Shown here: positions 11,087 to 43,746 of the stretch, one piece after another
Layout: the number at the start of each line of letters is the position of its first letter
Numbering within the stretch: position 1 is the first letter of the stretch
From: Endocalyx cinctus
Taxonomy: Eukaryota; Ascomycota; Sordariomycetes; Amphisphaeriales; Apiosporaceae
Direction: 5' to 3'
NCBI GenBank assembly: GCA_001600455.1
Contig: BCKC01000008.1
Location: 2,515,345 to 2,579,344, forward strand
Length of the DNA stretch: 64,000 nt
Program-made: the position numbers and the translations under genes
Notes under the pieces: model-generated
What the model was told of the DNA's origin: nothing
Seen by the model: the letters and a program-made list of their open reading frames with translations, nothing else
Databases searched by the model: none

Positions 11087-11744
11087 CTTGATTGATATTG
11101 ACCATCTACCAGATAATTTGACTCCTGATTGAAAAATATTTAAAGAAGAAAAGAAAGCGGAAATTCGCAAAAGTGCGGGATGAAGTGAATAGAATCATTC
11201 ATTCTTTTTCTCTTGATATTATGGAAATATGGCAATCGCATTGTAACGAACCGCTAACGGAGAAAGGGCAGGAGACAGTGAAGAGAGCCCACTCCACTCC
11301 TTAAAGATCCTGCCTATTTCTAGCTTAGCACGCTGTCAGGCGGTTAAGAAAAAAATAAAAANAAAAAGAAAAAAAGGGAAAAATAAAAGAATTCAGTTAA
11401 TTTTTGTTATACCCTGTAAACCCCGCCATTCCCTTGACGCCACTACCCTATAATTATGCACATACCGCGGTAGAGTGGCCTGAGTGGTAATAATACGCCT
11501 TTCTTCTTTGGGATAAAAGGTAAACAACCTTTTAGGTTACTATATATCTTCACCCTTGTTTATTCTTATCGCGGTCTTCTATATATTTTATAATATTTGT
11601 CGTACATCTCACTTCAAGACCCTCATAGACTCCTCAAGGGAAGATACCTAGGCAATCTCTAAGGGGAATAACAAGGAGAAAAAGGGAAAAAAAGGAAAGG
11701 CTCAAGAAACAATCGAGACAACTTTCTTCAAGATACAAATTGCA
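11087..11744. promoter_or_regulatory. Divergent promoter region between RS-protein and Sos7 genes
   Basis: These 658 bases separate two start codons pointing away from each other. They hold an A-rich tract (about 11348-11390) with the only ambiguous base of the window (n at 11362) and purine-rich leader DNA close to 11700. No specific binding site could be named. Confidence 0.5.
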
Positions 11745-22745: not shown

Positions 22746-23294
22746 TTTCATGTAACCAAAGGAATATGTCCTCGTTTTCAGGGCAAAGGTACCCCAGCTG
22801 CATACAGTATACAGTATACCGTATACAAAAGTGCCAAGAGTGCTGATTTGTCGCAAATGCCAAGCCGTTAGTTTGCCAAATGCCACCTTCGAAGGTCGTT
22901 TCAAGGATCAAGTTGCGAATTTTCAGACCGAGGAGCTGCTGTGTGTATCTAAATATCTTGGGTAAGTACCTAGGTAGACGTCTAGCCATTGACTGAATAG
23001 GGGTGAGCTGCTGTCAAACGCCTCTTCTTATTGGGTGGGCATATATGTAACTCAAGTAGTTAAACAGATGAAGTAGCAATTAAGTGGGTTTCTTATACAC
23101 ATAAGTACTAGGTACTCCAAATACACATAATACCTCTATTCGATCTGTTCGTCTCCATTCATCATAAAAGGATTGTTATGATGCATTATATTCCAATGTT
23201 TTCTCAATGTTACACCTATGATGTTACGTTTCGTTGTATAATTAGATACTGCCTCCCGTACACATCTGTCATTGCGTTCATTTCTTTCGTTTTA
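22746..23294. other. Intergenic, nothing supported
   Basis: This stretch leads from the transporter fragment to the MITE. It holds a short ACAGTATACAGTATACCGTATAC microrepeat near 22803-22825 and no gene. Confidence 0.5.
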
Positions 23295-23925
23295 AGTCGA
23301 CTACCCCGTCAACGTGCCACCCCTCAACGCGCCACACATATAAATTTGGTATAAACGCGAAATGTAAAAAATACTATATATCTTAACCACCACTAATCGG
23401 AAAAACATAATTTTTTCAGAAATATAATCAGAAAAGAAAAACCTTACGCTTATATCTATTTATTTTTTTAAAAAATCAGAAATAAAAAAAAATGTGAAAA
23501 TTTTATATGGAATGGTAAACCCCACTTTTATTTTTACCCCTTTTCCCCTTTTTATAAAAGAAATAAATCGTATAGGTAAATATTTTTTTTTTCGTACGTA
23601 TATTTCTTAACGTAATAAATTATTTTATTAAAAAAAAAAAGAAAATTTTTTTTTTTTTTATAATTAATTTATGTTAACAATTTTTTTAGACGTTTATATA
23701 TAAATTCTGTTAGTAAAACTTTAATTACTTATATCTTTTTTCTTTTTTTTTTTAAAAAAAAATAAATATATTTTTATATTAAAAGTTTCTTTTTTAGAAT
23801 TAATTTATATAAAAATATTATTTATTTTATTTGTTATGGTTAAGATATAAGGTACGAAAAAATGAGGTTTTATATGGGAAATGGTATGGGCGTTGAGGGG
23901 TGGCACGTTGACGGGGTAGTCGACT
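23295..23925. mobile_element. 631-bp MITE, Tc1/mariner-Fot1-like, with perfect 36-bp inverted ends
   Basis: The left end begins AGTCGACTACCCCGTCAACG and continues through GTGCCACCCCTCAACGC (23295-23330). The right end (23890-23925) is its exact reverse complement over 36 bases. Both ends are flanked by TA (23293-23294 and 23926-23927), the target duplication of Tc1/mariner elements. The AGTC start resembles Fot1-type ends. The interior is extremely AT-rich with long A and T runs and no open frame, so the element is non-autonomous. The extreme AT bias could reflect repeat-induced point mutation of a former transposase copy or simply a MITE interior. Perfect ends imply a young insertion. Confidence 0.9.
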
Positions 23926-24068
23926 TACCTATTTTTTTCCCAACTCCCCGAATAAGCTTATTTAACCCCGACTGGTCAAATATCAGAAGATTATCTCACC
24001 ATCCGTGTTTCTGACACTCCTGATATTTACCTTTACCTCTGCCTTTTACTTTTACTTTCAATTTCAAG

Positions 24069-32194: not shown

Positions 32195-32451
32195 CAGATT
32201 GTCAGAGCTTATGGAGGGTAATTGGGAGCTTGGTAATCATATGATGTAAATATGTCATTGAATTAGGGCTTGAGGACTATCTAATTCTATGAATCGAACG
32301 GGAGCTCAGCACCTTATTTATAATGCTTCCTGAGCTGGCACTACGTAATTCAGGGGTTGGTCAATTACTCAAACCGGGTTCATGAGCTTGATTCCACCCC
32401 GTAATGTAACGTCTCCGAAACCAGGTCCCATTTAGTCCCACTTCTCCGTCA
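32195..32451 (+). repeat. LTR-like dispersed repeat, copy 3 (left arm of inverted pair)
   Basis: It runs from TCAGAGCTTATGGAGG to CCCACTTCTCCGTCA. Landmarks shared with the other copies are TCTATGAATCG, GCTCAGCACC, TTATTTATAATGC, GGTTGGTCAAT and CAGGTCCCATTTAGTCCCA. Read on the other strand it begins TGACGGAGAAGTGGGAC, as an LTR would begin with TG. Confidence 0.8.
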
Positions 32452-32800
32452 TAATAGTTCTCTGTGTCATTCTTCACAGTCTGAAGAACAGTCCCGAATT
32501 ATTCAACACCACAAGAACCCAGAGTGAAACACCTTCAACTAGAATCGTGCGGAAAATTATGAGGAAATTGTAAAGATAAGGGAAGAAAACGGAGGTTGCT
32601 GGTCTTTTAAGGTACATGAACGTGAGATTTATCAATAGTGCCAGTCGTGGTATTATTATGAGATACTGTTACTTCAAAAGTCATGTTAGGTAACGGGATG
32701 AACAATTGTTGGTACGGATACTAACTTCTAGCTTTAATTTAAGATGATACAGGATTTCTTTCATTTCGGGCTCAATAAATAGAGTATTTGCTGGTACTTG

Positions 32801-33062
32801 TGAGGTGGGACCGAATGGGACCTGGTATCAGAGGCGCAAAATTAACGGGTGGAATTGAGCTCACCAACTAGGTCTGAGAGATTGACCAATCCTGTAATTA
32901 CGTATAACCAGCTCTGAAAGCATTATAAATAGGGTGCTGAGCACCCTTTCGATTCATAGAAGTAGATAGATTCCTAAGCCCTAATTCGATGAAGTATTTA
33001 CATAGTATACTCTATATGATTACGAAGCTCCCAATTTACCTCCGCAAGCTTCAACGCATTCA
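32801..33062 (-). repeat. LTR-like dispersed repeat, copy 4 (right arm of inverted pair)
   Basis: It runs from TGAGGTGGGACCGAATGGGA to GCTTCAACGCATTCA and is the inverted complement of copy 3 over about 250 bases, with scattered mismatches and small indels. The two arms are separated by 349 bases that contain no open frame. The pair could fold as a large hairpin if transcribed. Confidence 0.8.
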
Positions 33063-36811: not shown

Positions 36812-37988
36812 ATGCCACCTCGACCTAAATCTGAAGAGTATACTGCTATTGAGGACGAAGAGGCTGCGTACTCGTCCGAGACTGAAAGTAGTGAAAATCT
36901 GCTTGTCCGCAACCGGAGGCGCGTCAAAGTCCCATCCGCTTGGATCCCGCGATTGCAATGCAATGCTGCAGGTTCCATCCTAGTACTTTTACTGGCAGTT
37001 GTGATCGTCGGAGTCACCTTCCAAGCTGCCCTCTGGTACGAAAGAAGAGGCAGCAATGCCCCTAGGTATCGCCCAGCCTTCTGTGAGTAGAGACTATTAC
37101 GTGGTTTGATTGACTGTTATGGCATATAAGCTATGCAGGAGACTTTTTTGTATAATAGCTAATATCCATAGCGCCATTGTATGATATGACAAACATTCCT
37201 CTAGTAACAAAGTATGCCGACCACTCTCCAGCACCCAATGCCTCGGATCCAAGGCATATCTACAGGCTTGACCCCAGCCCCGAAGTCGACGCGGCTTGGA
37301 CCCGCATCGCGAGCGCTGACGGAGTCTATCCCATGTCGGTGGACGACGTAGTCCGGGCGGGTAAAGACCCCGCCCTCACCGTCGATGCACCGGAGTCCTG
37401 GGGTTTTCCTCCGGACAAGACCAAGATGATGGGAATCGAAGCTTTCCACCTCCTGCACTGTCTGAACGCTGTACGCAAAGGTCTTATCACTACCTATGAC
37501 TATTACTGGGGCCGACACTACGGGTTTGCTCCTCCGGCCGTCTTCGCACGCCACCTCAACCACTGCGTCGACATGCTCAGGCAGCATCTCATGTGCCATG
37601 CTGATCTGGAACCCTTCACCTTCAATTGGCGTGTAGGCCAGAGTAAACCGTATGCCGATTTCGGTATTCGTAAGACGTGCGTTGACTTTGACTACTTGCT
37701 TGAATGGTCTGAAAAGAACAAAGATCCTCAGCACGAGGAGCTGGTAAGTTTCAGGAAAACCCCCCTCCCTGACTTATCGTGTCTCTAGTTCTGTATCGGC
37801 AGACTAATTGCTTCTCATACTACTAGTGGAGGGCCTTGGAAAAGCCAGAAGGCGTGATAGAGAAAGAGGCTCCAGCTGATCTGCCAAAAATTACGAATGA
37901 AACAATCTGGAGCCCGAGCGGTGCGTTTCCTGTCGCTAATATTACAGGTTTGGCCGGCAAAGAATACTGTCTCAGCCCCGATTCATAG
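36812..37988 (+). CDS. UstYa-family (DUF3328) HxxHC oxidase-type membrane protein
   Basis: Three exons: 36812-37082, 37172-37743, 37827-37988; introns of 89 and 83 bases; 334 residues. A cytoplasmic N-terminus with an acidic stretch precedes one transmembrane helix (about residues 55-74, GSILVLLLAVVIVGVTFQAA). The two family signatures are HLLHCLNAVRK and HLNHCVDMLRQHLMCHAD. UstYa-type proteins catalyse oxidative cyclisation, hydroxylation or chlorination in fungal ribosomal peptides (ustiloxin, phomopsin) and some other metabolites such as cyclochlorotine. The later segment AWTRIASADGVYPMS and GGVFPP-like spacing also fit. The start is the ATG in the CAAAATGCC context; the frame is open further upstream but without a better ATG. 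Its position near the mur genes and a CmcJ-type gene suggests a metabolic cluster, not proven. Confidence 0.83.
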
Positions 37989-38509: not shown

Positions 38510-39595
38510 CTAAGAAGTGAGGTATGTGTGTTCTTTGCCTGTTCTGGATAAATCCGGCAGGACCTGCGGTTCTATATGTAATATCAATCCGGAAGTTTCC
38601 TGTACACCTTTGATTATTTTCGCTTCAAACTTCAGTAAGCTAGCTGTATTGACACAACTCTCGTTAACGAGCACCAATGCTTGACCTGCCCAGGTCGCCA
38701 TCCCGGTCTCCTCGTCATGGTAATCTGCGAACCCTGATCGGTCTATCAGCCAAGCTGCAGACACCCTCCATCTGTTGCCGGAGAGCTGAAAAGCTGGAAC
38801 GTCATTAACGTTCATTCTCTTCTTTAGTATATCTAATTCGGAATTGGAGATCGTTGGGTTCTTGAAGTATGACCCGCAGTTTCTCACTACTTTAGGATCC
38901 GGAAGTTTGGAGTTGCGTATGGCGATTACTGCTTCCCGTAAAGTCCTAGGTGTATAGTTTGATATGGTGTGTTTGTCGAGATAATCTTGTAGTCCAACGT
39001 AGAATGGGGCCCGAGCCGGTCGCTTTATGAGGTGCAGCGTGATCGAGGTGATGAAAAAGCGACTGCGATCCTGAGAATTGAAACGAGAAGTGCGGTAATC
39101 AAACCCACAGTCAGGGGCATGTATTGTCCTGAATGTGTTTTTTAATCTGTCAAAGGCCTCGACGAAGATAAGAACTTGGCTAATATCCTGTCCATACGCT
39201 CCGATATTTTGGACTGGCGCGGCTCCAGCGGTGCCTGGGATCTTACTTAGGCATTCGATACCACTGTATCCAGAATAAGTGATTCTTTTTACGACATCGT
39301 CCCAAATCTCGCCGCTGCCTATAGTAACGTGAACACTATGTCCCAACTCGTCTTGTGGCGTTACGGTGTACCCCCGAATTCTATTCACCATAACAAGGCC
39401 GGCGAAGTCACCATCATTCCAGACGATGTTACTGCCCGCACCAATCATGATAACTTCCATTATATTGCGCTGCTTCGCCCAAGTGACAATATTTGTCAGA
39501 TCCGACTTGCTCTTCACCGCCACGGAGTACGCCGCGGTGCCACCAAGTCCCATTGTAGAAAGGTCGCGTAAGGGAGTATTCGTATCAACTTCCAT
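38510..39595 (-). CDS. murB: MurB-type UDP-N-acetylenolpyruvoylglucosamine reductase
   Basis: Single exon, 361 residues from the ATG at 39595, close to the E. coli MurB size. The FAD-binding motifs are present: STMGLGGTAAYSV (residues 13-25), IGAGSNIVWNDGDFAGLV (51-68), GSGEIWDDVV and GIECLSKIPGTAGAAPVQN continuing NIGAYG (112-135). CGFDYRTSRF (163-172) holds the substrate-binding Tyr-Arg. NCGSYFKNP (239-247) has the catalytic proton donor S242, AAWLIDRSGF the late helix, and LHIEPQV the catalytic E342. This is the type I layout. The enzyme uses NADPH and FAD to reduce UDP-GlcNAc-enolpyruvate to UDP-MurNAc. No signal peptide: cytosolic. An alternative ATG at 39652 would add 19 residues including eight Lys encoded by an A24 tract; I prefer the downstream start because MurB homology begins there. 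It is divergent from a MurA gene. Peptidoglycan enzymes are bacterial, so gene transfer is inferred. Confidence 0.9.
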   Translation of the reverse strand: MEVDTNTPLRDLSTMGLGGTAAYSVAVKSKSDLTNIVTWAKQRNIMEVIMIGAGSNIVWNDGDFAGLVMVNRIRGYTVTPQDELGHSVHVTIGSGEIWDDVVKRITYSGYSGIECLSKIPGTAGAAPVQNIGAYGQDISQVLIFVEAFDRLKNTFRTIHAPDCGFDYRTSRFNSQDRSRFFITSITLHLIKRPARAPFYVGLQDYLDKHTISNYTPRTLREAVIAIRNSKLPDPKVVRNCGSYFKNPTISNSELDILKKRMNVNDVPAFQLSGNRWRVSAAWLIDRSGFADYHDEETGMATWAGQALVLVNESCVNTASLLKFEAKIIKGVQETSGLILHIEPQVLPDLSRTGKEHTYLTS

Positions 39596-40148
39596 GGCGC
39601 TATTGATGTCGGTAATTTTTTTTTTTTTTTTTTTTTTTTCATCAGGAATCATGACACCCAAAAACTATTCTAAGCCTGCTGACATCTCGTGTGCTGAATA
39701 AGTAATTATTGCATATCCCTAATTTTGTGTCTACGTCCTTTTAGACCGTAAATGCCTCCACGTACGTCATGTCTCATACAGCATCACCTTAATTAATTAG
39801 TGTGCATTTCAGAGCTATGTTTTACATGCTCATTCCATCCGTTTATTTGGTTACACTTTTGTACTGCATAACCTTACTCCTCTCCATGCACAATGGTATT
39901 TCTACGGTATTCTCCCTTGTGAGATCTATTCTTCCCTTGCTGCCATACCTTCAGTCGCCGTACAACCAGAATTTGTTTTCAATGAAATTAGCTACCTCTT
40001 ATAACCAGTATGCTTGAATGACTGGTCGTACTATAATACAAGTAACCTCTCTATTCTCAGCTGATCGTTGGCCGTATTCTAGGAACCCGCCACGCAGATA
40101 TTCTCGGACATCCGAATAGCTTGTGGGACACTGAGTACACGAGCTATA
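39596..40148. promoter_or_regulatory. Shared divergent promoter region of murB and murA
   Basis: 553 bases lie between the two start codons. A run of 24 T (39616-39639, A24 on the murB strand) falls 20 bases upstream of the murB ATG. The rest is AT-rich, with no gene. Sharing one region would allow joint expression of the two consecutive enzymes. Confidence 0.6.
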
Positions 40149-41727
40149 ATGCCAGTCTATTGGAAAATAGAAGGAAGTTACACCCTTAGAGGCTCTATAA
40201 TTGTTAACACGAGCAAGAATGCCTCCTTATCCATAATATGCGCGAGCCTTCTCAACAAAGGTACCACTCGTTTAATTGGTATTCCACAGATCGATGATAT
40301 ATTTTACCTTCTAGAGTGTCTCGAGGGCATGGGAGTTAATGTGAGATGGTACCCCCGCAATAATAGCTGCATTAGTCACGGCGATCGGCAAGATAATCTT
40401 GGTCTCATTCTCGAACTCACTCCACCAGTCAAGCTAGACCTTGGTGGTCTTGATATGAGAAACGCATCGAAAACGCGTGCTGCTATTCTTCTCATCGGTA
40501 TTTTAATACATCAATGCAAGGAATTCACTATCCCACAACTAGGAGGTTGCGATCTTGGCGCTCGGAGTATTGCGACACATGTCCATGCACTGGAGGGATT
40601 AGGCGTTCTTGTGCGAAGTCATGATCGTATCGGTGTGACGTGCCCAGCGATAATCAAATCACCCTCGCAATCTATCGCCCTCCGCGAAGCGAGTGATACT
40701 GCCACTCAAAATATCATAATTGCCGCTGCTCTCGCCCCAGGGAAGACAACAATTGAAGGTGCTAGTGCAAACTATATGGTACAGGATCTGTGCTACTTTC
40801 TTAAGACTCTCGGAGTTGATATTGAAGGTGTTGGTAAACCGACACTAGTCATTCATGGAACGTCTTCGATCCGGAAGAACGTGATCTATACGCCGTCAGA
40901 AGACCCCATTGAGGCGATGACTTTCATCTCTGCCGCCATAACCACGAATTCTAAACTCACTGTTCGAAGGGTGCCTATGAACTTCTTGGCATTTGAGATA
41001 CGGGAATTAAAGAGAATGGGTATTTCTTTTGGGCGTAAGTAAGCGGAATTATATATTTTTCCCTCTTTCTCCGGGGAGAAGTGTCCAAGTGGTGTAACGA
41101 GTTATGGTAACTAACAATGAGCATATTATCGCTACACTTTTAGAATCTCCACCTTACCGTTCCCAAAATACGCACTGCATACATCCTGTGACCGATATCA
41201 CTATTCATCAGCATGACTATCGGTTCAATAAGCAGCAAAATCCCAAAGTGTTGACACCTAATACTTTTCCCAACGGAGTAAATATTGACAACCTACCACT
41301 ATTCATCCCGATAATAGCAGTAACTCAACGCCATGTTCATATTCATGACTGGGTGTTTGGCGGCAGTCGTATAGCGAGCTATTCCCTCTTTAAGGATCTC
41401 GGTGCTGATATCGATGTTCTAGACCCATATCGAATCAGCATCAATGGCACTTCAAACGAAGAAAAAAGGGAGATTAGTACCATATACAGCTCAAAGGGGT
41501 CTAAACATATAGATGCACTTGCTAGAGGGTCCCATTCTAAATTGCACGGAGCTGATCTCATCGCTCCGGCAGCTATTAGACCTGCCGTCGCTCTTCTGAT
41601 TGGTATGCTGGGGGCCAAAGGTACCTCTCTGTTACAGCAAACAGATATACTTGACCGTGGACACGAATGCTTAGCTGAACGTCTTCGTGGAATCGGTGCC
41701 CGGATAAAGGATTGGAAGCGTATATAA
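40149..41727 (+). CDS. murA: MurA-type UDP-GlcNAc 1-carboxyvinyltransferase (EPSP-synthase fold)
   Basis: Two exons, 40149-41034 and 41102-41727, joined by a 67-base GTAAGT...CGAG intron; 503 residues. MurA signatures: LRGSIIVNTSKNASLSI (K23, N24), SKTRAAILLIG (R110), LGGCDLGARS with the catalytic-type C134, EDPIEAMTFISAA (D252), then after the intron KLHGADLIAPAAIRPAVALLIG (R455) and ILDRGHECLAERLRGIGA. The enzyme transfers enolpyruvate from PEP to UDP-GlcNAc, the first committed step of muramic acid synthesis. C134 also predicts fosfomycin sensitivity. Bacterial MurA is about 420 residues; the excess is mainly in the segment after the intron (residues 297-360). The next enzyme of the path, MurB, is the adjacent divergent gene. 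EPSP synthase itself is excluded by the KN...S start and the CDLGARS loop. Confidence 0.88.
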
Positions 41728-42567: not shown

Positions 42568-43746
42568 ATGCTGTCCCACATAGCCGTCGGGGCCGTCCGC
42601 CTCGCTCCCCGCTTTTACAATAGCGAGACAATCCGTACCTTATCGAAGCGCGCGACCGAAGCTGTGGCAACGAGGACACCTGATGATAACTCGGACTGGG
42701 GGGTTACGGGAAACTGGGGAATAGCTGTACTCGTGATCGCGAATTTTATGCTAATCGTCCCCGTGTATCTTTTCGTGAGTTTGGCCTCCAAATTTCTCAT
42801 GTTTACCTAATGGCCTCTACCTTTTCTATGGACTACTAACAAGATTTAGATGACGTACACACTCGGAAAACTTGTACCTACTCTGGCTATGGTCGAGGGC
42901 GAAGCCCCGCCGGCGTATCAATCCGTCCCGCTAAAGGCCGATGAAGTCGAGATCGATGATAAGAACGAACCGGACGCGATGCCCATCTCGGAAAGAGCCG
43001 ACCCCACCCAGCAGCAGCTCGTTACAAGCAGCATTCGCGCCACTTGTCGTATGCTCCGCTCGATCGAAGGCTGGCGTTCTTGGTTCCGAGGCTTCGCCCT
43101 ACTGATGATCGCTGGGTTCGTCGAAGGTTTCTTTGCCTTGGTATTATCCACGATTTTACCTATTTCCGTAGGCACGCTCGTCAGCTCCATCATCGGTGCT
43201 CCTCTCGAAACCTTGTGGGTCCACCTAATCCTCTCGCCAACCACGAATCGCTCCTGGCGAAAGATGATGCCCGACCTTAAGACGACCTACAAGGCTACCG
43301 CTCTGCCCACTCTCTTACCCAATCTCGCACTTTCTATCCTCATTTGGGTTGATGATGCCGCACTTAAAGCCATGCGGACCGGATCCATCGACGTCCAAGA
43401 TATTAAGATCCGAATCGGATTGCCCGTCAGCATTTTGGCTCTTGCGGTCGTGATGGCCATCCTTGTCATCCCCGTTACCACCATGCTGGTCAGAGTGCAG
43501 GCTTCTCTCCTACCACCTGATGCGGAAACCATCGTTTGGGTGGACCGCACATTTGGCGTCCTAGCGGAGGGTGAGGCTTATCTTTCGATGGGCGACGCGT
43601 ACAGATCAGTTTCGCGAGCTACATGGAAGCGCCTAATCAAACTTTGCGCCAAGATTGTAGGGTTAGCCATGGCATGTGGAGCTGTCATTGGTTTGATTGT
43701 CGGACTTGAGTTCGTCGTCATGTCCGCCATAGCTGCGGCACATTGA
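42568..43746 (+). CDS. Conserved fungal multi-pass membrane protein
   Basis: Two exons, 42568-42774 and 42850-43746, with a 75-base intron; 367 residues. Exon 1 ends in a hydrophobic helix (GIAVLVIANFMLIVPVYLF). After a polar, acidic stretch (about 72-130) there are at least four more helices: FALLMIAGFVEGFFALVLSTILPIS, ALPTLLPNLALSILIWV, LPVSILALAVVMAILVIPVTTML and IVGLAMACGAVIGLIVGLEFVVMS. I recall similar fungal proteins labelled ubiquitin-conjugating enzyme in databases, but no UBC fold or active-site Cys context is present, so I do not use that name. High GC and a normal intron indicate a long-standing resident gene. Its function is unknown. Confidence 0.78.

What the first reader, a model, noticed from the sequence alone, without database searches (positions are those of the whole stretch)
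38510..41727. A fungal murA-murB pair: two-step route to UDP-N-acetylmuramic acid outside bacteria
A complete MurB (GAGSN, PVQNIGAYG, catalytic-type S242 and E342) and a MurA (K23-N24, C134, D252, R455 equivalents) sit back to back. They catalyse consecutive steps from UDP-GlcNAc, which a fungus makes for chitin, to UDP-MurNAc, the peptidoglycan precursor. Muramic acid has no known place in a fungal wall. The surrounding genes are ordinary fungal genes and the murA gene has a spliceosomal intron, so contamination is unlikely. Transfer of both functions from bacteria, kept as a divergent pair, is the simplest reading.
Basis: partly seen in the sequence, partly recalled or inferred. Interest (0 to 1): 0.92.

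Follow-up and report, generated by a model that had tools for sequence, protein, structure and literature searches.

The report
Fungal murA–murB pair from Saccharibacteria
A filamentous fungus carries, side by side in its own chromosome, two bacterial genes that should let it make muramic acid, the hallmark sugar of bacterial cell walls, and both appear to come from a group of tiny bacteria called Saccharibacteria.

Summary
MurB (361 aa, minus, 38510-39595) and MurA (489 aa, plus, 40149-41727, one predicted 109-nt intron) sit head to head in a 2.59-Mb contig of a 44.8-Mb assembly, between genes with fungal domains. MurA has two relatives in Xylariales fungi. The three form one clade (100/99), share residues not seen in 173 bacterial-type sequences, and lack the donor's N-terminal HTH domain, so the MurA transfer is old. 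Whether MurB came with it is open. Catalytic residues are kept and MurB folds as MurB. Searches of the genome found no Mur ligase, transpeptidase, AnmK or true MurQ, so the route should stop at UDP-MurNAc. Against simple conservation: this MurA evolved about 4-5 times faster than its fungal kin and misses NCBIfam's MurA cut-offs. Placing either protein just outside the sampled Saccharibacteria is not rejected. Activity, expression and use of the product are inferred. No report of fungal murA/murB appeared in the rows listed by my searches of the held library.

The parts
38510..39595 (-). murB: type I UDP-N-acetylenolpyruvoylglucosamine reductase, 361 aa, no intron
39596..40148 (.). 553-bp divergent intergenic region between the two genes; includes a homopolymer run (T on the + strand) just upstream of murB
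40149..41034 (+). murA exon 1 (K23, N24, R110, C134, R139, D252)
41035..41143 (+). predicted spliceosomal intron of murA, 109 nt, GTAAGT 5' site, CTAAC at 41111, TTTTAG 3' site
41144..41727 (+). murA exon 2 (D344, R371, R441, R467); carries an insertion of about 25 aa relative to bacterial MurA
37159..37785 (+). flanking fungal gene: frame with UstYa domain (PF11807), convergent with murB; no evidence that it belongs to the pair
42568..43746 (+). flanking gene of unknown family downstream of murA, read as at least two exons; no Pfam match to the two frames tested

Best explanation
This is an old bacterium-to-fungus transfer. A fungal ancestor took up murA from a Saccharibacterium or a close relative of that group. 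The fungal MurA lacks the N-terminal HTH part of the donor's fused protein, and in this fungus the gene has a spliceosomal intron. The genome also holds a murB of the same bacterial type, now head to head with murA. Inferred mechanism: in the cytosol MurA joins phosphoenolpyruvate to UDP-GlcNAc (which fungi make for chitin; recalled), and MurB reduces the enolpyruvyl product with NADPH/FAD to UDP-MurNAc. With no MurC-F found, the route should end there. UDP-MurNAc would then serve as donor for some non-peptidoglycan glycoconjugate or small metabolite. Shown by sequence: location, intron signals, homology, donor affinity, catalytic residues, predicted MurB fold, and no Mur ligase at the search's sensitivity. 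Inferred: activity, expression, product, use.
For: MurB: the 120 listed hits are 47-53% identical by BLASTP (54% for P0027 in the alignment); the 4 of 120 that carry an organism name are all Saccharibacteria. Among the 80 loci kept of a prokaryote scan, Saccharibacteria-type loci reach 52%, the best other bacterium 39%. Trees split other bacteria off from the group holding MurB (99* SH-aLRT, 99/95*), and joining MurB to four Bacteroidota rows is rejected (p-AU 3.9e-7).

MurA: fungal clade at 99/99 and 100/99, placed among Saccharibacteria-type sequences in the best trees that hold an outgroup. Of 26 residues shared by the three fungal MurAs against the bacterial majority, 7 occur in none of 173 bacterial-type sequences.

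Constraint: MurB keeps 43 of 46 fully invariant columns but 38 of 120 of the most variable ones; window MurA 84 of 111 against 15 of 65. The MurB model has pLDDT 91.9 and matches P. aeruginosa MurB at TM 0.88/0.94.

Neighbourhood in the donor group: murB, a reverse-strand frame read as glyA, and murA within a few kb in 8 of 8 loci examined.

No peptidoglycan continuation found: Mur_ligase_M, Transpeptidase and AnmK 0 hits each; the MurQ model only 24.7 bits against a cut-off of 302.
Against: No expression, biochemical or metabolite data. From the common fungal node the window MurA has a path of about 2.0 changes per column against 0.52 and 0.39 for the two Xylariales MurAs. It changed 40 positions that are at least 99% invariant in the bacterial-type set, besides 18 in the missing HTH part; some of the 40 are changed in Xylariales too. 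It scores 231.8 against TIGR01072's 392.7 and 256.2 against NF006873's 297. Placing MurB outside all sampled Saccharibacteria is not rejected (p-AU 0.19 and 0.31), nor is placing the fungal MurA clade there (p-AU 0.097), so a stem position remains possible. No fungus-named MurB is among the 120 listed hits. Gene order differs from the donor (head to head instead of same strand), and no closely Saccharibacteria-like glyA was found (long matches 44-46%). The genome searches were six-frame and exon by exon, so a heavily split ligase gene could be missed.
Confidence: 0.6

Rival explanations
1. MurA has been retasked. After transfer it drifted to another acceptor or product, for example a nucleoside natural product as with NikO-type enolpyruvyl transferases, and MurB acts on that product or is a separate survivor.
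For: MurA's long branch and many changed invariant positions; it scores below the NCBIfam murA and PRK09369 cut-offs; NikO (4fqd) is a solved family member that acts on another nucleotide (hit; its chemistry is recalled).
Against: MurB, which in bacteria needs the MurA product, stays tightly conserved (43 of 46 invariant columns). The catalytic K23, N24, C134, R139, D252, D344, R371, R441, R467 are kept. The one bacterial relative tested and both Xylariales MurAs also fall below TIGR01072 (P0166: 299.2 of 392.7). A profile of eight sequences that includes the window MurA prefers MurA structures (2.3e-65) over NikO (1.7e-23).
Confidence: 0.2
2. Two separate acquisitions. MurA is the old transfer shared with Xylariales; MurB came independently from Saccharibacteria, and the two became neighbours afterwards.
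For: No fungus-named MurB among the 120 listed MurB hits, while MurA has two fungal relatives; the two genes have different rates and an arrangement unlike the donor's.
Against: Both come from the same unusual donor group, which keeps the two genes within a few kb in several genomes. A common source near genome G006 has only weak support: MurB beside L007, a partial protein (87/83), and MurA in a group with L082 at 45/10.
Confidence: 0.3
3. The pair serves an endohyphal bacterium: the fungus supplies UDP-MurNAc to a symbiont's peptidoglycan synthesis, as the mealybug Planococcus citri does with its transferred mur genes.
For: P. citri carries transferred murA-murF and ddlB (passages of PMC5664097), and a peptidoglycan route shared by host and symbionts is reported (passages of PMC7154730); an endohyphal bacterium in the ascomycete Pestalotiopsis is reported (abstract start of PMC9040847).
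Against: No Mur ligase, which the mealybug has, was found. UDP-MurNAc is not expected to cross a bacterial membrane (recalled chemistry).
Confidence: 0.07
4. Assembly chimera or bacterial contamination.
For: Bacterial-type genes in a eukaryotic assembly; the assembly has some Ns elsewhere and the contig ends in what reads like a transposon piece.
Against: 2.59-Mb contig with fungal-domain genes on both sides; the only N in the 64-kb window lies 27 kb away; an intron with fungal-type splice signals; residues shared with Xylariales MurA; listed bacterial relatives are at most 54% identical.
Confidence: 0.02

Closest known systems
Saccharibacteria (Saccharimonadota) MurA with N-terminal HTH domain, and its MurB
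   Same: Highest sequence identity (MurB up to 54%, MurA up to 49% in alignments, 45% by BLASTP), the same MurA/MurB active sites, genes close together in several donor-group genomes
   Different: The fungal MurA as modelled lacks the HTH domain, has an intron and two insertions; genes divergent rather than same-strand; no Mur ligases found
MurA of Xylariaceae sp. FL0662B (P0128) and Whalleya microplaca (P0241)
   Same: One clade with the window MurA (99/99, 100/99), shared rare residues, no HTH domain
   Different: 75-76% identical to each other but about 49-50% to the window protein; slower evolution; a linked murB was not seen and could not be tested
Mealybug (Planococcus citri) transferred mur genes
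   Same: Bacterial murA and murB in a eukaryotic genome (PMC5664097, passages)
   Different: The insect also has murC-F and ddlB and bacterial symbionts; here only murA and murB are found
Plant (moss) plastid peptidoglycan pathway
   Same: Eukaryotes that make peptidoglycan precursors (abstract start of PMC9434261)
   Different: There the precursors serve chloroplasts; a fungus has no plastid, and no ligases were found here
NikO enolpyruvyl transferase (PDB 4fqd)
   Same: Matched by the same MurA profile
   Different: Much weaker match than MurA structures (1.7e-23 against 2.3e-65)

Membership tests
MurB (UDP-N-acetylenolpyruvoylglucosamine reductase, type I) | FAD_binding_4 plus MurB_C domains | tested here: met
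   7.6e-15 and 9.7e-14, both above cut-off
MurB (UDP-N-acetylenolpyruvoylglucosamine reductase, type I) | Curated equivalog score | tested here: met
   TIGR00179 152.5 >= 144.5; NF000755 279.1 >= 277; NF010478 233.3 >= 231
MurB (UDP-N-acetylenolpyruvoylglucosamine reductase, type I) | Catalytic Ser, Glu, Arg and the type I Tyr | tested here: met
   S242, E342, R168, Y134, Y199 invariant; their roles in E. coli MurB and the type I assignment are recalled
MurB (UDP-N-acetylenolpyruvoylglucosamine reductase, type I) | MurB fold | tested here: met
   pLDDT 91.9; 4jay TM 0.88/0.94; ranks 1-18 of the 50 matches shown are MurB structures
MurB (UDP-N-acetylenolpyruvoylglucosamine reductase, type I) | Reduces enolpyruvyl-UDP-GlcNAc with NADPH | not testable with these tools
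   needs an enzyme assay
MurA (UDP-GlcNAc enolpyruvyl transferase) | EPSP_synthase domain and better match to MurA models than to AroA | tested here: met
   NF006873 and TIGR01072 at 4.3e-76 and 1.2e-68 against aroA 4.1e-14
MurA (UDP-GlcNAc enolpyruvyl transferase) | Catalytic Lys-Asn, Cys, Asp, Arg residues | tested here: met
   K23, N24, C134, R139, D252, D344, R371, R441, R467 kept; correspondence to E. coli numbering is recalled
MurA (UDP-GlcNAc enolpyruvyl transferase) | NCBIfam curated cut-offs | tested here: not met
   231.8 of 392.7 (TIGR01072), 256.2 of 297 (NF006873). P0166 (bacterial) misses TIGR01072 (299.2) but passes NF006873 (315.9); P0241 passes NF006873 (304.5), P0128 misses it (287.7)
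MurA (UDP-GlcNAc enolpyruvyl transferase) | Transfers enolpyruvate from PEP to UDP-GlcNAc | not testable with these tools
   needs an enzyme assay
Peptidoglycan precursor pathway | Mur ligases MurC-F | tested here: not met
   PF08245, 0 hits in the own genome, controls ring in 12 of 14. Caution: a fungal folylpolyglutamate synthase, which I recall as related, did not show either, so sensitivity is limited
Peptidoglycan precursor pathway | Transpeptidase (PBP) | tested here: not met
   PF00905, 0 hits, controls ring in 10 of 14
Horizontal transfer from Saccharibacteria | Phylogenetic placement inside or on the stem of Saccharibacteria | tested here: met
   inside rather than on the stem is not significant by AU test (p 0.19, 0.31 for MurB; 0.097 for MurA)
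Horizontal transfer from Saccharibacteria | Eukaryotic gene structure and fungal chromosomal context | tested here: met
   the intron is predicted, not seen in transcripts

The most novel reading that the evidence does not exclude
A fungus makes UDP-MurNAc de novo and builds muramic acid into a molecule of its own that is not peptidoglycan: a capped chito-oligosaccharide, a wall glycan, or a secreted muramyl compound that speaks to bacteria or hosts. MurA would have been kept in fungi since before the split between this fungus and the Xylariales lineages that carry it.
Probability: 0.33. Interest if true: 0.93.

Novelty: new variant of a known kind. Interest (0 to 1): 0.78.

Why it matters
Muramic acid is used as a marker for bacteria (recalled). 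A fungal nuclear route to UDP-MurNAc would break that rule and would point to an unknown fungal glycoconjugate or signal. Transfer from Saccharibacteria, small and probably episymbiotic bacteria (abstract start of PMC8406219), into a fungus would also be an unusual gene flow; the rows listed by the searches showed no such paper in the held library. Because murA and murB stand without any Mur ligase that I could find, the case is testable with one metabolite measurement and two standard enzyme assays.

Tried and rejected
UstYa, HET and fungal rhodopsin domains suggest Pezizomycotina (inference).

Larger transferred block: L002's glyA found two loci in the own genome, with long matches at 44% and 46% identity and one short piece at 49%, which I read as ordinary fungal SHMT genes. 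No systematic screen for other Saccharibacteria genes was possible.

Extra introns inside the two MurA insertions: no in-frame candidate with convincing splice signals. The 51-nt candidate 41477-41527 was left in the protein.

MurNAc salvage: AnmK 0 hits; the only MurQ-model match is far below cut-off.

Bacterial promoter or terminator scan of 39500-40300: no more than shuffles give.

A biosynthetic gene cluster: apart from UstYa I saw no tailoring or core enzyme next to the pair among the 40 other window frames scanned with Pfam. These are 40 of 198 stop-to-stop frames of 70 aa or more, so missed exons are possible.

Rows chosen or dropped: the MurB trees used 83, 52 and 41 rows; I left out L007, L014 and other rows. 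The MurA trees used 74, 42 and 40 rows; I left out 8 of the 28 unlabelled rows and added 6 outgroup rows. The first MurA tree warned that long branches meet. One search was given 37 of the 80 loci.

Papers: search listings and abstract starts for (searches returned none); passages only for PMC5664097 and PMC7154730.

Because of the second, the odds of two separate acquisitions were raised from 0.25 to 0.3.
Full report
What is there. The pair is real and intact. MurB is a 361-aa frame without introns on the minus strand (38510-39595); the ATG at 39595 is the start that fits bacterial MurB. MurA is on the plus strand in two exons (40149-41034 and 41144-41727), separated by a predicted 109-nt intron with GTAAGT, CTAAC and TTTTAG signals; removing it gives a 489-aa protein that aligns through the junction with bacterial MurA. 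The two genes diverge from a 553-bp intergenic stretch. They sit at C8:2,553,854-2,557,071, 35.4 kb from the end of a 2,592,500-base contig in an assembly of 44.76 Mb and 15 contigs. Flanking frames carry fungal domains, and the only N in the window is at 11362. The contig's end reads like a transposon piece, and no telomere repeat was found in its last 13 kb.

Where the genes come from. In a database of 5.8 billion proteins the 120 listed MurB hits (of 7987) are 47-53% identical; 4 of the 120 rows carry an organism name and all 4 are Saccharibacteria. In the 80 loci kept of a prokaryote scan, the top seven (41-52%) are Saccharibacteria-titled or untitled bacteria that fall in the same clade, Saccharibacteria-type loci as a whole span 33-52%, and the best other bacterium reaches 39%. 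For MurA, 12 of the 120 listed rows carry an organism or sample name: five Saccharibacteria, one Patescibacteria group, one soil metagenome, four MAGs named for other phyla but with the same protein type (mis-binning is my guess), and one fungus, Xylariaceae sp. FL0662B. A profile of the two fungal MurAs found one more, from Whalleya microplaca. In the 37 genomes searched with MurA, all 37 had a match; the 21 Saccharibacteria-type genomes gave best E-values of 1e-55 to 1e-102, 15 others 1e-19 to 1e-35, and one Patescibacteria-titled genome (G020) 7e-87 although its MurB is not of this type.

Trees. Other bacteria are split off from the group that holds the window MurB and Saccharibacteria at 99* (SH-aLRT) and 99/95*. 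Holding MurB with four Bacteroidota rows is rejected (lnL 168 worse, p-AU 3.9e-7). Holding it simply outside all sampled Saccharibacteria is not rejected (p-AU 0.19; 0.31), so an origin on the stem of that group is not excluded. MurA: the window protein and the two Xylariales proteins form one clade, 99/99 and 100/99 with outgroups, where it lies among Saccharibacteria-type sequences in the best tree; the deeper forks around it are weak, and moving the fungal clade outside is only mildly disfavoured (lnL 2.5, p-AU 0.097). The first quick tree warned of long branches meeting, but the clade persisted after the second Xylariales protein was added. It is backed by 26 shared residues against the bacterial majority, 7 of them in none of 173 bacterial-type sequences. 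The simplest reading is one MurA transfer before this fungus and the Xylariales parted; fungus-to-fungus transfer later is possible.

Joint or separate arrival. In 8 of 8 Saccharibacteria-type loci examined, murB and murA lie on one strand 1.4-4.4 kb apart (measured between stop-to-stop frames) with a reverse-strand frame of about 430 aa between them. I examined 8 of the 9 loci, among 23 Saccharibacteria-type loci, that held both genes in the fetched stretch. In other genomes they are further apart, for example about 33 kb in G003, or not on one fetched stretch. In L002 the middle frame is serine hydroxymethyltransferase; in the other seven I recognised it by its N-terminal sequence. A single short fragment could therefore have carried both genes. 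In the fungus the order is head to head and no closely Saccharibacteria-like glyA was found, so a rearrangement or two events are needed. Support for one common source genome group is weak (87/83 for MurB with the partial L007; 45/10 for MurA with L082). A linked murB in Xylariales was not visible and could not be tested.

State of the proteins. MurB keeps 43 of 46 fully invariant columns and 57 of 61 columns that are at least 99% invariant. Its AlphaFold model has mean pLDDT 91.9 and the 18 best PDB matches are all MurB. It passes the curated murB equivalog. MurA keeps the catalytic set K23, N24, C134, R139, D252, D344, R371, R441, R467 and 84 of 111 invariant columns against 98 of 111 in each Xylariales MurA. 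From the common fungal node its path is about 2.0 changes per column against 0.52 and 0.39, about 4-5 times faster; it has two insertions and misses NCBIfam's murA cut-offs. So selection appears to have acted on both proteins, since invariant columns are kept far more often than variable ones, but MurA has moved faster and its substrate should not be taken for granted. The three fungal MurAs, as modelled, lack the donor's N-terminal HTH domain; an unrecognised upstream exon in this fungus is not excluded.

What it probably does. Both proteins together would turn UDP-GlcNAc and PEP into UDP-MurNAc in the cytosol; this is inferred from family membership and conserved residues. The own genome shows one MurB_C, EPSP_synthase only in this gene and in one large frame with a 413-bit match that is presumably AROM, and no hit for Mur_ligase_M, Transpeptidase or AnmK; the MurQ model matched one place far below cut-off. 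These were six-frame, exon-by-exon searches, so a heavily split gene could be missed. A complete peptidoglycan route is thus unlikely, and UDP-MurNAc would be an end product or a donor for another glycoconjugate. The nearest precedent, the mealybug Planococcus citri, has murA-F and ddlB together with bacterial symbionts (passages), which is a different situation.

Novelty. Bacterial gene transfer into fungi is known, and mur genes in eukaryotes are known in mealybugs and plants. I found no paper on murA or murB in a fungus, nor on a Saccharibacteria-to-fungus transfer, in the rows listed by searches of the held open-licence library; most subscription papers are not held, several searches listed only part of their matches, and the two Xylariales MurAs are already annotated in public databases as putative UDP-GlcNAc 1-carboxyvinyltransferases. 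I therefore call it a new variant of a known kind.

Noticed in passing
32206-33050: Fold-back element: nested inverted arms of 37, 33 and 168 nt at 80-86% complementarity with 357 nt between the innermost arms; may be a degenerate transposon.
   Followed up: partly
23001-24000: AT-rich island (GC 0.283; 0.23 in 23501-24000) with TpA/ApT 1.17 and (CpA+TpG)/(ApC+GpT) 0.53 in its second half, as expected after repeat-induced point mutation.
   Followed up: partly
37159-37785: UstYa-domain gene (PF11807) directly next to murB; UstYa proteins belong to fungal RiPP-type pathways (recalled), yet no partner genes were seen among the frames scanned.
   Followed up: no
L090 (G020:C13) and L027: A Patescibacteria-titled genome carries a Saccharibacteria-like MurA on a 5.2-kb contig while its MurB groups with other bacteria; transfer or mis-binning.
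   Followed up: no
P0121-P0240: By my count 115 of the 120 listed Saccharibacteria-type MurA rows carry an N-terminal HTH domain in their precomputed Pfam list (5 do not, one of them fungal), so MurA there may bind DNA or be regulated through it.
   Followed up: no
G000:C8:2586345-2592500 (L115): The contig ends in what reads like a Ty3-type element (integrase/chromodomain-like, my reading) with no telomere repeat found.
   Followed up: no
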